Assembly: GCA_944376975.1 (NCBI GenBank)
Contig: CALWEE010000039.1
Span: 1 to 10,979 of the forward strand
Reading direction: 5' to 3'
Length of the DNA stretch: 10,979 bases
Origin: an uncultured Lachnospiraceae bacterium
GTDB lineage: Bacteria; Bacillota; Clostridia; Lachnospirales; Lachnospiraceae
This document shows positions 9,524-10,979 of this stretch, one piece after another (positions within the stretch are counted from its first letter, which is position 1; each line of letters starts with the position of its first letter). The notes beneath the pieces are model-generated. The model worked only from the letters and a program-made list of their open reading frames with translations, did no database searches and was not told the DNA's origin. The position numbers were made by a program, and so were the translations under genes.

Positions 9524-10600
9524 ATGCCATCCTGGAGTTTATGTATGATCGTCAAAGATGAGGAAGACGTCCTGCCCCGCTGCCTGGACAGCGCCAGGAC
9601 ACTGGCGGATGAGATGATCCTTGTGGATACCGGCTCGTCAGACCGGACGAAAGCGGTCATAGAGGCTTACGGCGGCCGGCTTTTTGAATATGAATGGCAG
9701 GACGATTTCGCGGCGGCCAGGAATCACGCCTTTTCAAAGGCCACTTCAGACTACTGTTTTTGGCTGGACGCGGACGACATCCTGCCGCCGGATACGGTCC
9801 GCGCGCTGAAAGCGCTGAAAGAACAGGCCGATCCGGACGTGGATGTGATCATGCTCCCGTATCAGACCGCTTTCGACGAGAAGGGGCGGCCCACGTTTTA
9901 TTGCTGGAGAGAGCGGATCTTGCGCAGGGACAGCCGATGTGTGTTTAAAGGCCGCGTCCATGAGGCGGTCGCGCCATTCGGGCGGGTCGTGTACGTGGAC
10001 GCGCCGGTGCGGCACCATAAGATCGCCCCGTCCGATCCGGACAGAAACCTGAAGATATATGAAAAGATGATCGAAGCCGGGGAAGCGTTGGACGCCCGGC
10101 AACTTTATTATTATGGAAGGGAACTTTTGACCCATGGCCGTTTGGCGGAAGGGGAAGCGGTCTTTCTTCGTTTTCTCCGGAGCGAAGAAGGATGGATCGA
10201 AGACCGGATCGACGCGACCCGCCAGCTGGCTTATTGCCGGTATGGGCTGGGCAAAGACCAGGAGGCGCTTTACGCCCTGCTTTTCGGCCTGACCCTCGAT
10301 CGGGCGCGGGCGGAAAGCTGCTGCGATATCGGACGGCATTTTTTTGACCGGGAAGCGTATGACAACGCGGTTTTCTGGTACAAAGCGGCGCTCCTTTGCC
10401 GTGAAACGGCGCCCGCGGGCGGCTTTATACAGACGGATTGCCATGGGTTCCTTCCCTGTATCCAACTGTGCCGGTGCTATGACCGGATGGGCGATCTTAA
10501 GACGGCCTGCATGTATAATGAACAGGCCGGCCGGTATAAACCGGACGCGGAATGGGTGGTTTACAACAGAAAGTATTTTTCGGAAAAAGGGATCGGCTGA
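9524..10600 (+). CDS. Family 2 glycosyltransferase with TPR-like C-terminal half
   Basis: I choose ATG 9524 (358 residues), which gives MPSWSLCMIVKDEE, the usual opening of this family; GAGGGG lies just upstream, with short spacing. Starts at TTG 9488 or ATG 9494 add 12 or 10 unlikely residues. The GT-A domain covers about 1-210: the donor-binding segment VDTGSSDRT (34-42), the EWQDDFAAARNHA segment (57-69), and the metal-binding D-x-D in WLDADD (82-84). From about 215 the chain becomes helical with repeated A-x-x-x-Y and G-x-x-x-A patterns, looking like TPR units. Fusions of GT2 with TPR include peptide glycosyltransferases such as SunS. Directly downstream is a collagen-like gene, a plausible acceptor rich in Thr; this is inference. 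No membrane segment is visible, so it should act in the cytoplasm. Confidence 0.9.
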   Translation: MPSWSLCMIVKDEEDVLPRCLDSARTLADEMILVDTGSSDRTKAVIEAYGGRLFEYEWQDDFAAARNHAFSKATSDYCFWLDADDILPPDTVRALKALKEQADPDVDVIMLPYQTAFDEKGRPTFYCWRERILRRDSRCVFKGRVHEAVAPFGRVVYVDAPVRHHKIAPSDPDRNLKIYEKMIEAGEALDARQLYYYGRELLTHGRLAEGEAVFLRFLRSEEGWIEDRIDATRQLAYCRYGLGKDQEALYALLFGLTLDRARAESCCDIGRHFFDREAYDNAVFWYKAALLCRETAPAGGFIQTDCHGFLPCIQLCRCYDRMGDLKTACMYNEQAGRYKPDAEWVVYNRKYFSEKGIG

Positions 10601-10662
10601 CCGGATATGTCGACCAAACCATATGACCGGAAGGGCATGTGGTTTTGCCGGCAGCAAGCCGG
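10601..10662 (+). other. Two small hairpins between glycosyltransferase and collagen-like gene
   Basis: CCGGATATG (10601-10609) pairs with CATAT-GA-CCGG (10620-10630) around a 10-base loop, with a two-base bulge. CCGGC (10648-10652) pairs with GCCGG (10658-10662) around a 5-base loop. Neither is followed by a T run, so they do not look like intrinsic terminators. They may mark mRNA processing, leaving the two genes on one transcript. No clear promoter for the downstream gene is seen. Confidence 0.35.
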
Positions 10663-10691
10663 AATGGAATGAAAAAACAGGAGTTGATCCC

Positions 10692-10979
10692 ATGTTTAAT
10701 CCCTTTAAAGGATACTTTTCAAAGGAGAATGATCCGGGATATACACATGAAGATATGACGGAGGCGGAGAGCTTCGGCTGCGGCAGAGGCTGCAACTGTC
10801 ATTGCCCGCCGCCGAAACCGCCTTGCCCGCCGCCGGGGCCCACCGGTCCGACCGGTCCCATGGGCCCCGCGGGAGCCACCGGAGCAACGGGTCCCATGGG
10901 CCCCACAGGCCCAACCGGGGCTGCCGGACCTACCGGTCCCACCGGCCCCGCCGGAGGCCCGACTGGTCCTACAGGAGCC
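10692..10979 (+). CDS. Collagen-like protein with Cys/Pro-rich head (3' end outside window)
   Basis: The frame is open from ATG 10692 to the right edge (96 residues visible), with GGAG eight bases upstream. Residues 1-28 are mixed and acidic, without a signal peptide. Residues 29-48 are rich in Cys and Pro: Cys at 30, 34, 36, 38 and 45. From Gly49 the chain is made of Gly-X-Y triplets, mainly GPT, GPM, GPA and GAT. This matches bacterial collagen-like proteins of the BclA/exosporium sort, where many Thr in Y carry sugars. Lack of a signal peptide also fits spore-surface filaments assembled from the mother cell, with cysteines for cross-linking. A glycosyltransferase is the upstream neighbour. 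The triplets are interrupted once by an extra Gly near residue 88. A C-terminal trimerising domain would be outside the window. Spore location is inference. Confidence 0.88.
   Translation, partial: MFNPFKGYFSKENDPGYTHEDMTEAESFGCGRGCNCHCPPPKPPCPPPGPTGPTGPMGPAGATGATGPMGPTGPTGAAGPTGPTGPAGGPTGPTGA
10836..10979 (+). repeat. Collagen Gly-X-Y triplet-coding repeat
   Basis: The 144 bases encode Gly-X-Y triplets, with much repetition at DNA level. GGTCCCATGGGCCCC occurs at 10854-10868 and again at 10890-10904, 36 bases or twelve codons apart, and ACCGGTCC recurs several times. Such tracts vary in copy number by slippage and are prone to assembly error. The repeat continues past the edge. Confidence 0.9.

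What the first reader, a model, noticed from the sequence alone, without database searches (positions are those of the whole stretch)
9524..10979. Glycosyltransferase (GT2-TPR) next to a Cys-headed collagen-like protein: possible glycosylated surface or exosporium filament module
Seen: a GT2 gene with VDTGSSDRT and WLDADD, a TPR-like tail, then a gene with five Cys in 16 residues followed by Thr-rich Gly-X-Y triplets and no signal peptide. Known: BclA-type collagen-like proteins of spore formers are heavily glycosylated on Thr and often lie near glycosyltransferase genes. Inferred: this enzyme modifies the adjacent protein, perhaps on the triplet Thr or on head Cys, since SunS-like GT2-TPR enzymes can use Cys. 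The Cys/Pro head resembles no anchor I know.
Basis: partly seen in the sequence, partly recalled or inferred. Interest (0 to 1): 0.7.

Follow-up and report, generated by a model that had tools for sequence, protein, structure and literature searches.

The report
Spore-hair collagen with sugar-adding partner enzyme
A gut-type bacterium carries, side by side, a gene for an enzyme that probably puts sugars on threonines and a gene for a collagen-like, probably spore-surface fibre with a cysteine-rich head; such a pair is known from one relative and recurs in many Clostridia, so this is mostly an ordinary member of a known kind, with a shared cysteine head that may explain how such fibres are attached.

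Summary
9524-10600 encodes a 358-residue GT2 glycosyltransferase with a TPR-like tail; 91 bases downstream starts a collagen-like ORF with five Cys in 16 residues, cut by the contig end. Its probable 3' part is on contig C169 of the same genome.

The pair is conserved: of the 80 best enzyme relatives kept (of 585), 54 have a same-strand collagen ORF within 500 bp. A sigma-K-like site precedes the enzyme gene in 32 of 40 pairs (29 of 220 control ORFs). This is the layout of Clostridioides difficile sgtA-bclA3, where SgtA (also 358 aa, GT+TPR) puts beta-O-GlcNAc on collagen Thr in vitro.

Best reading: an SgtA-like O-glycosyltransferase decorating Thr of the neighbouring spore-surface fibre. Cys as acceptor is poorly supported. 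The Cys head is itself conserved (39 of 41 downstream partners have 3 or more Cys; Cys is rare elsewhere in the protein) and is more likely a disulfide anchor or helix staple.

Weak points: about 20 of 80 relatives have no collagen neighbour; Spo0A, SpoIVA and SpoIIID were not found in this incomplete genome; SgtA's own sequence was not compared.

The parts
9449..9475 (+). sigma-K-like promoter site: AC (9449-9450), 16 bases, CATATACTG (9467-9475); -10 begins 57 bases before the ATG; 7 of 8 consensus positions
   Evidence: a score of 7 or more upstream of 32 of 40 collagen-paired GT genes (3.6 expected in shuffles); 29 of 220 other ORFs. Consensus recalled.
9524..10600 (+). SgtA-like GT2 glycosyltransferase with TPR-like tail, 358 aa
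9623..9649 (+). VDTGSSDRT motif, nucleotide-sugar binding by recall (D35, T36, G37, D40 invariant in 64 aligned sequences, window included)
9761..9778 (+). WLDADD with DXD motif, metal binding by recall (W80, D82, D84, D85 invariant in 64 aligned sequences, window included)
10043..10585 (+). TPR-like, almost all-helical C-terminal part (residues 174-354)
10692..10979 (+). collagen-like protein, 5' part only (96 codons, runs off the contig)
10692..10835 (+). 48-residue head without signal peptide-like stretch
10779..10826 (+). Cys cluster, five Cys in 16 residues, its last Cys followed by three Pro and then the first Gly-X-Y
10836..10979 (+). Thr-rich Gly-X-Y region (Thr at Y in 10 of 15 triplets, by eye); probable remainder with C-terminal domain on contig C169 (L084:2-766)

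Best explanation
A late-sporulation (sigma-K type) pair of the sgtA-bclA3 kind. The GT2-TPR enzyme stays in the mother-cell cytoplasm, holds the collagen polypeptide through its TPR tail, and transfers a sugar (most likely GlcNAc from UDP-GlcNAc) to the hydroxyl of Thr at the Y position of Gly-X-Thr triplets. The modified protein trimerises into a triple helix and is displayed as a hair on the spore surface, attached by its N-terminal Cys head, with the C-terminal BclA/C1q-like domain outward. Shown here: gene anatomy, conserved pairing, conserved sigma-K-like site, conserved Cys head, conserved GT2 motifs, relation of the C169 C-terminal domain to those of partner proteins. Inferred: donor sugar, acceptor residue, role of the tail, location, mode of attachment, fold of the C-terminal domain, and that C169 is the rest of this gene.
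For: Pairing: 54 of 80 relatives have a same-strand collagen ORF within 500 bp (39 downstream, 15 upstream); 58 of the 67 collagen ORFs in these loci lie there on the same strand, in a zone making up 7.7% of the flanks. In 60 family genomes 8 of 9 full-length orthologues (318 bits or more) lie next to a collagen match, against 0 of 20 genomes whose best match is a distant paralogue (110-171 bits) (Fisher 2e-6); 12 of these 20 have no collagen match at all, so 8 are informative, and none of the 8 has it on the same contig. Regulation; all 9 genomes with an orthologue have sigma-K-like matches of 273 bits or more; in C. difficile CD3350 stands at 0.09 and bclA3 at 0.02 in the sigK column as I read the flattened table (PMC3789822, passages; no promoter is marked there for CD3350). 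Biochemistry: SgtA, 358 aa, GT+TPR, gene immediately upstream of bclA3, makes beta-O-GlcNAc-Thr on collagen peptides in vitro (PMC7157674, passages and section 3.3). Solved relatives: GmaR 96 bits against SunS 54, 155 against 101 by profile. Thr at Y: at least 0.28, median 0.625, in the 41 downstream partners with a usable head; Thr at Y of 0.4 or more in 14 of 21 Gly-X-Y ORFs from genomes with the enzyme, 6 of 36 from those without.
Against: 24 of 80 relatives have no collagen ORF by the criterion used and 2 have one only farther off on the other strand; 4 of the 24 lie close to a contig end and L014 has a short Gly-X-Y ORF below the threshold, so about 20 enzymes stand without a collagen neighbour and may have another or a distant acceptor. 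The genome has no Spo0A match over the cut-off and no SpoIVA or SpoIIID match, though sigma-K-like (291 bits, just under the cut-off) and SpoIIE-like (335 bits, under the cut-off) matches are there; at 91% completeness three losses by chance are unlikely, so sporulation may be incomplete in this strain. Co-occurrence with a strong sigma-K/E-type match across genomes is weak (9 of 44 against 0 of 16, counted by hand, p 0.048). The Thr association is confounded by Gly-X-Y proteins of other kinds: among Pro/Ala-rich collagens it is 14 of 16 against 2 of 6. Four upstream partners that flank the enzyme on the other side are Thr-poor (0.09-0.16). I did not obtain the C. difficile SgtA sequence by name, so identity to it is unmeasured. 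By fold, SunS and ThuS are the top hits (GmaR does not appear among the 50 rows shown).
Confidence: 0.8

Rival explanations
1. S-glycosylation: the enzyme works like SunS/ThuS and glycosylates the Cys of the head.
For: SunS and ThuS are the best fold matches and SunS is the best NCBIfam match; the head is rich in Cys and conserved as such.
Against: 63.7 bits against a family cut-off of 350; GmaR is closer by sequence; downstream partners L072, L075 and upstream partners L018, L065 have 0-1 head Cys; Cys-rich heads also occur in genomes without a full-length orthologue (L110, L111, L112; the genome of L112 is only 67% complete); an SgtA substrate peptide with an added N-terminal Cys was shown by NMR to carry GlcNAc on Thr (PMC7157674 section 3.3).
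Confidence: 0.05
2. The enzyme is a general glycosyltransferase (surface polysaccharide or another protein) and the collagen gene is next to it only by shared spore regulation.
For: About 20 of 80 relatives have no collagen neighbour; 10 of 22 of those examined still have a sigma-K-like site.
Against: Adjacency is far above chance and in both orders, up- and downstream; in G003 the enzyme is alone but a Thr-rich collagen (0.94 at Y) lies elsewhere in that genome; the characterised counterpart modifies its neighbour.
Confidence: 0.1
3. The collagen protein is not a spore hair but the tip fibre of an endospore appendage (ENA-like), docked by its Cys connector as proposed for L-BclA.
For: A 5-Cys N-terminus with a CC motif and a C1q domain is described for a candidate tip protein (PMC11952670 passages).
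Against: No match to the Ena family or to DUF4183 in 9 of 9 genomes with the enzyme, but neither search had a control genome over the cut-off, so this is weak. The window head has C-x-C, not CC.
Confidence: 0.07
4. Vegetative cell-surface or phage-tail collagen unrelated to spores.
For: Spo0A, SpoIVA and SpoIIID not found; Gly-X-Y proteins of other kinds exist in the family (for example the G015 set).
Against: No signal peptide-like stretch in the head and no LPXTG seen by eye in the C169 tail; sigma-K-like site; sigma-K-like and SpoIIE-like genes present; C-terminal domain of the partner type.
Confidence: 0.06

Closest known systems
SgtA-BclA3 of Clostridioides difficile (CD3350-CD3349)
   Same: 358-residue glycosyltransferase with TPR tail, gene immediately upstream of a collagen-like exosporium protein, both down in a sigK mutant (PMC7157674, PMC3789822; passages and one section)
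   Different: Direct sequence comparison not done; window protein has 14 Cys against 10 in SgtA; a Cys-rich head is not reported for BclA3 in the passages I read
GmaR of Listeria (O-GlcNAc transferase of flagellin, recalled)
   Same: Closest solved GT domain by sequence (22ao, 96 bits; profile 155 bits)
   Different: Antirepressor of flagellar genes (search listing and abstract starts); flagellar substrate and no collagen partner, by recall
SunS / ThuS S-glycosyltransferases
   Same: Best fold match, GT2 domain with a helical tail
   Different: Far below the family cut-off; their substrates are glycocin bacteriocin precursors (recalled)
BclA and BclA-like exosporium collagen proteins
   Same: Short head, Gly-X-Y stalk rich in Thr, C-terminal domain faintly like BclA_C and C1q (18.7 and 15.4 bits, both below cut-off, on C169)
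   Different: Head is Cys-rich; the B. anthracis exosporium leader (recalled) is not seen by eye, as reported also for C. sporogenes BclA/BclB (PMC4942563 passages)
L-BclA and the 5-Cys collagen protein AGE80398 of Bacillus
   Same: Cys-rich N-terminus before collagen repeats and a C1q domain (PMC11952670 passages)
   Different: Linked to endospore appendages, for which no subunit was found here (weakly controlled)
F-BclA of Bacillus thuringiensis
   Same: Thr/Ser-rich collagen-like protein with a putative glycosyltransferase gene two genes upstream (PMC11952670 passage)
   Different: Not immediately adjacent; tip fibre of F-ENA; that enzyme's family was not examined here

Membership tests
SgtA-type collagen O-glycosyltransferase | GT-A domain followed by TPR-like helical tail, about 358 aa | tested here: met
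   358 aa
SgtA-type collagen O-glycosyltransferase | gene immediately next to a collagen-like gene, same strand | tested here: met
   91 bases upstream of the collagen ORF; 54 of 80 relatives
SgtA-type collagen O-glycosyltransferase | sigma-K control | tested here: inconclusive
   site at 9449-9475 with 7 of 8 positions of a recalled consensus, site type conserved; no transcript data
SgtA-type collagen O-glycosyltransferase | transfers GlcNAc from UDP-GlcNAc to Thr of Gly-X-Y peptides | not testable with these tools
   needs enzyme assay
SgtA-type collagen O-glycosyltransferase | sequence orthology to C. difficile SgtA | tested here: inconclusive
   SgtA itself not identified by name in the rows listed; the Metaclostridioides mangenotii relative (L051) is 44% identical to the window enzyme and has a collagen ORF 421 bases upstream
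SunS S-glycosyltransferase (TIGR04195) | score over the curated cut-off | tested here: not met
   63.7 against 350 bits
SunS S-glycosyltransferase (TIGR04195) | glycocin precursor gene beside it (recalled) | tested here: not met
   immediate neighbours are a B3/4-domain gene and the collagen gene; the gaps (83 and 91 bases) are too short for a precursor of usual size; small ORFs elsewhere were not examined
BclA-type exosporium collagen protein | collagen-like region | tested here: met
BclA-type exosporium collagen protein | BclA_C / TNF-C1q-like C-terminal domain | tested here: inconclusive
   C169 domain 18.7 bits against cut-off 38; 46 and 50% identical to two partner collagens' domains; that C169 is the same gene is inferred; structure prediction of such a domain was not available
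BclA-type exosporium collagen protein | B. anthracis-type N-terminal exosporium leader | tested here: not met
   48-residue head read by eye; leader motif recalled
BclA-type exosporium collagen protein | located on the spore surface | not testable with these tools
   needs proteomics or microscopy
ENA tip protein (L-BclA type) | appendage subunit encoded in the genome | tested here: inconclusive
   no Ena or DUF4183 match in 9 of 9 genomes; neither search had a control genome over the cut-off

The most novel reading that the evidence does not exclude
The Cys head is the missing clostridial anchor: where the B. anthracis leader and ExsF are lacking, these Clostridia use a short, fast-evolving, Cys-dense head whose last Cys sits a median of 2 residues before the first Gly-X-Y triplet. 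It would staple the three chains at the base of the triple helix and cross-link the hair to the Cys-rich basal layer of the spore surface, while the co-regulated SgtA-like enzyme coats the stalk with sugar. The pair would be a general hair-building module of clostridial spores.
Probability: 0.35. Interest if true: 0.55.

Novelty: new member of a known kind. Interest (0 to 1): 0.38.

Why it matters
The one characterised pair of this kind that I found is that of one pathogen. The same arrangement in dozens of gut and environmental Clostridia, with a recurring promoter site and a recurring Cys-rich head, makes glycosylated collagen hairs look like a widespread trait of clostridial spores and offers a testable answer to how they are attached without the Bacillus anchor. 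Cultured non-pathogen strains that carry the pair (for example Blautia schinkii L031 or Mordavella massiliensis L012) could serve as models.

Tried and rejected
SunS-type S-glycosylation: considered first because of the NCBIfam and Foldseek hits, rejected on family cut-off, GmaR being nearer by sequence, and partners without head Cys. ENA tip protein: no subunit found, weakly controlled. C. difficile SgtA sequence by name: two protein searches (120 rows listed each) and the genome scan (80 kept) did not show it; left unmeasured. Own promoter for the collagen gene: none in the window (best score 5 of 8), though 22 of 39 collagen genes tested, window included, reach 7; the window gene is probably read from the enzyme's promoter. 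Solved relatives of the C169 C-terminal domain: best a C1q/TNF-related chain at E 0.056. Papers: the listings of searches (open-licence library only) showed no paper on an SgtA-type enzyme immediately beside a collagen gene outside C. difficile; I read passages of five of the papers and one section of PMC7157674, and PMC11952670 does report a putative glycosyltransferase gene two genes from F-BclA in B. thuringiensis. PMC8968730, a review of prokaryotic collagen-like proteins, was seen only as a listing. Not followed: a tree of the enzymes with and without a collagen neighbour.

In one search opposite-strand overlapping ORFs were dropped and at least 8 triplets were needed. Head counts leave out 5 of 58 partners (masked, truncated or no start found); of the 12 upstream partners with a usable head 8 have 3 or more Cys. 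The promoter test used 39 downstream-paired loci plus the window, and 22 of the 26 loci without a collagen neighbour (L039, L056, L076, L078 left out as too near a contig end). One search scored ORFs from the loci fetched; weak Pfam hits in G001, G005, G013, G048, G051 and some further weak places were not fetched, L149 (same contig as L111) was not scored, and the set includes Gly-rich ORFs that are not true collagens. Distances use the tblastn match start as start codon. The sigma-K consensus was recalled from Bacillus subtilis; the logo in PMC3789822 is a figure and was not seen.

Full report
What is there. The window is the whole of contig C39 of a 1.83 Mb, 274-contig genome, 91.43% complete. 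An ATG at 9524 opens a 358-residue GT2 enzyme ending at 10600; after a gap of 91 bases an ATG at 10692 opens a collagen-like ORF that runs off the contig at 10979. Pfam gives Glycos_transf_2 at 5e-24 for the first and Collagen at 27.0 bits (cut-off 27.2) for the second; the genome search puts the second over the cut-off at 28.3 bits. The head of the second protein has five Cys in 16 residues, no hydrophobic stretch, and is followed by triplets with Thr at Y in 10 of 15 (by eye on the translation).

The other end of the fibre. The only other Pfam Collagen matches in this genome are on contig C169, where an ORF open at the contig's first bases carries 37 triplets (Thr at Y 0.70) and a 144-residue tail. 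That tail's domain is 46 and 50% identical to the C-terminal domains of the enzyme-adjacent collagens of relatives G035 and G021, and tblastn finds it in 19 of the 80 relatives' loci (best 58% in L008); in L007 and L010 the hit lies in a second collagen ORF 2.3 and 3.7 kb from the enzyme. So C39 and C169 probably hold the two ends of one gene broken at its repeats; this is inferred, and the pieces were not joined. Pfam sees the domain only faintly as BclA_C (18.7 bits) or C1q (15.4 bits), both below cut-off.

The enzyme. In 64 aligned sequences (window and 63 relatives) D35, T36, G37, D40, W80, D82, D84, D85 and other columns are invariant, the usual GT2 nucleotide-sugar and metal motifs by recall. 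The AlphaFold2 model is confident (pLDDT 95.3) with an alpha/beta N-terminal part and an almost all-helical tail; consensus-TPR chains match the tail. Foldseek ranks SunS and ThuS first, but by sequence GmaR is closer (96 against 54 bits; 155 against 101 by profile), and the SunS family cut-off is missed (63.7 against 350). GmaR as an O-GlcNAc transferase of flagellin is recalled; one search lists papers on it.

The pair is conserved. Of the 80 relatives kept from 585, 39 have a same-strand collagen ORF within 500 bp downstream as the nearest one and 15 upstream; 24 have none and 2 have one farther off on the other strand. Of 67 collagen ORFs in these loci 58 lie within 500 bp and on the same strand, in a zone that makes up 7.7% of flanking sequence. 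In a separate draw of 60 family genomes, 9 have a full-length orthologue and 8 of these adjoin a collagen match; of 20 further genomes whose best match is a distant paralogue (110-171 bits) none has a collagen match on the same contig (Fisher 2e-6). Twelve of those 20 have no collagen match at all; the other 8 have one on another contig. The ninth orthologue genome, G003, has a collagen ORF with 0.94 Thr at Y elsewhere.

Spore regulation. A site AC-N16-CATATACTG lies 57 bases before the enzyme's ATG. A score of 7 or 8 out of 8 for the recalled sigma-K consensus is reached upstream of 32 of 40 collagen-paired enzyme genes (3.6 expected from shuffles) and 10 of 22 enzyme genes without a collagen neighbour (1.65 expected), and of 29 of 220 control ORFs in the same loci; with the -10 placed 20-70 bases from the ATG, 27 of 40 against 13 of 220. 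The relatives are not independent, so the p value of 6e-17 overstates the case. In C. difficile the counterpart genes CD3350 and CD3349 stand at 0.09 and 0.02 in the sigK column, as I read the flattened table; a sigma-K-like promoter is marked for bclA3 and none for CD3350 (PMC3789822 passages). This genome has a sigma-K-like match (291 bits, cut-off 299; the split B. subtilis gene does not reach it either) and further sporulation-type sigma matches and a SpoIIE-like protein (335 bits, cut-off 491), but no Spo0A over the cut-off and no SpoIVA or SpoIIID match. Missing contigs or a decayed sporulation programme are both possible. Across the 60 genomes, 9 of 44 with a strong sigma-K/E-type match and 0 of 16 without one have the orthologue (hand count; p 0.048).

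Thr or Cys. In the 41 downstream partners with a usable head Thr is at Y in at least 28% of triplets (median 62.5%); four short upstream partners (L020, L022, L028, L040), whose enzyme also has a downstream partner, are Thr-poor (0.09-0.16). In the 60-genome set, Thr at Y reaches 0.4 in 14 of 21 Gly-X-Y ORFs from genomes with the orthologue and 6 of 36 from those without (p 4e-4); restricted to Pro/Ala-rich collagens it is 14 of 16 against 2 of 6. Cys-rich heads occur without a full-length orthologue (L110, L111, L112; the genome of L112 is 67% complete) and the enzyme occurs beside Cys-poor heads (L072, L075 downstream, L018 and L065 upstream). The characterised SgtA glycosylates Thr (and Ser) of Gly-X-Y peptides with UDP-GlcNAc and Mn, and a peptide with an added Cys was shown by NMR to carry the sugar on Thr (PMC7157674 section 3.3). 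Thr is therefore the likely acceptor.

What the head may do. Heads share composition more than sequence: 39 of 41 downstream and 8 of 12 upstream partners have 3 or more Cys; Cys makes up 12.6% of head residues (304 of 2421) against 0.3% of the collagen region, 1.1% of the tail and 1.8% of long ORFs nearby. Of 42 downstream heads (window included) 41 have a Cys, and in 34 of these the last Cys is within 3 residues of the first triplet (median 2). C. sporogenes BclA and BclB lack the B. anthracis leader, and no ExsF homologue was identified in clostridial genomes, so their linkage was thought to be different (PMC4942563 passages); the N-terminal domains of C. difficile BclA proteins are said to anchor to the spore surface (PMC13288923 passages). 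A disulfide staple and anchor is the natural reading, and untested. The nearest printed parallel is the Cys-rich N-terminus of L-BclA-type proteins of Bacillus (PMC11952670 passages); no appendage subunit was found in 9 of 9 genomes here (neither with a control over the cut-off).

Verdict. The mechanism is largely known from SgtA-BclA3, so this is a new member of a known kind. The part that goes beyond what I saw in the listings of searches is the breadth of the pair, its recurring promoter site and the conserved Cys-dense head.

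Noticed in passing
G024:C62, G029:C53/C59, G030:C32, G032:C1, G033:C14: In at least five family genomes the sigma-K match comes in two halves (kilobases apart on one contig in four of them, on two contigs in G029), like the skin-element interruption known from Bacillus subtilis and C. difficile (recalled).
   Followed up: no
G000: The window's genome has sporulation-type sigma factor matches and a SpoIIE-like protein but no detectable Spo0A, SpoIVA or SpoIIID: incomplete assembly or decaying sporulation.
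   Followed up: partly
window 1206-4732, minus strand: Two adjacent genes that look by eye like ABC exporters (581 and 594 aa), next to a LysR regulator; on C169 a MarR-like gene and another exporter-like gene seem to follow the collagen ORF (by eye).
   Followed up: no
window 5718-7121, minus strand: Lipoprotein-like protein with weak RHS-repeat and MORN matches.
   Followed up: no
L020, L022, L028, L040: In four loci the enzyme gene lies between two collagen genes: a short Thr-poor one upstream (Thr at Y 0.09-0.16) and a longer one downstream.
   Followed up: partly
L021, L023, L025: A shared neighbourhood (L023 is Anaerotignum lactatifermentans) holds the enzyme without any collagen ORF within 8 kb by the criterion; its acceptor there is unknown.
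   Followed up: no
L043 (titled Alphaproteobacteria bacterium): A 44% identical enzyme in a contig labelled as Alphaproteobacteria, without collagen neighbour; transfer or mislabelled bin.
   Followed up: no
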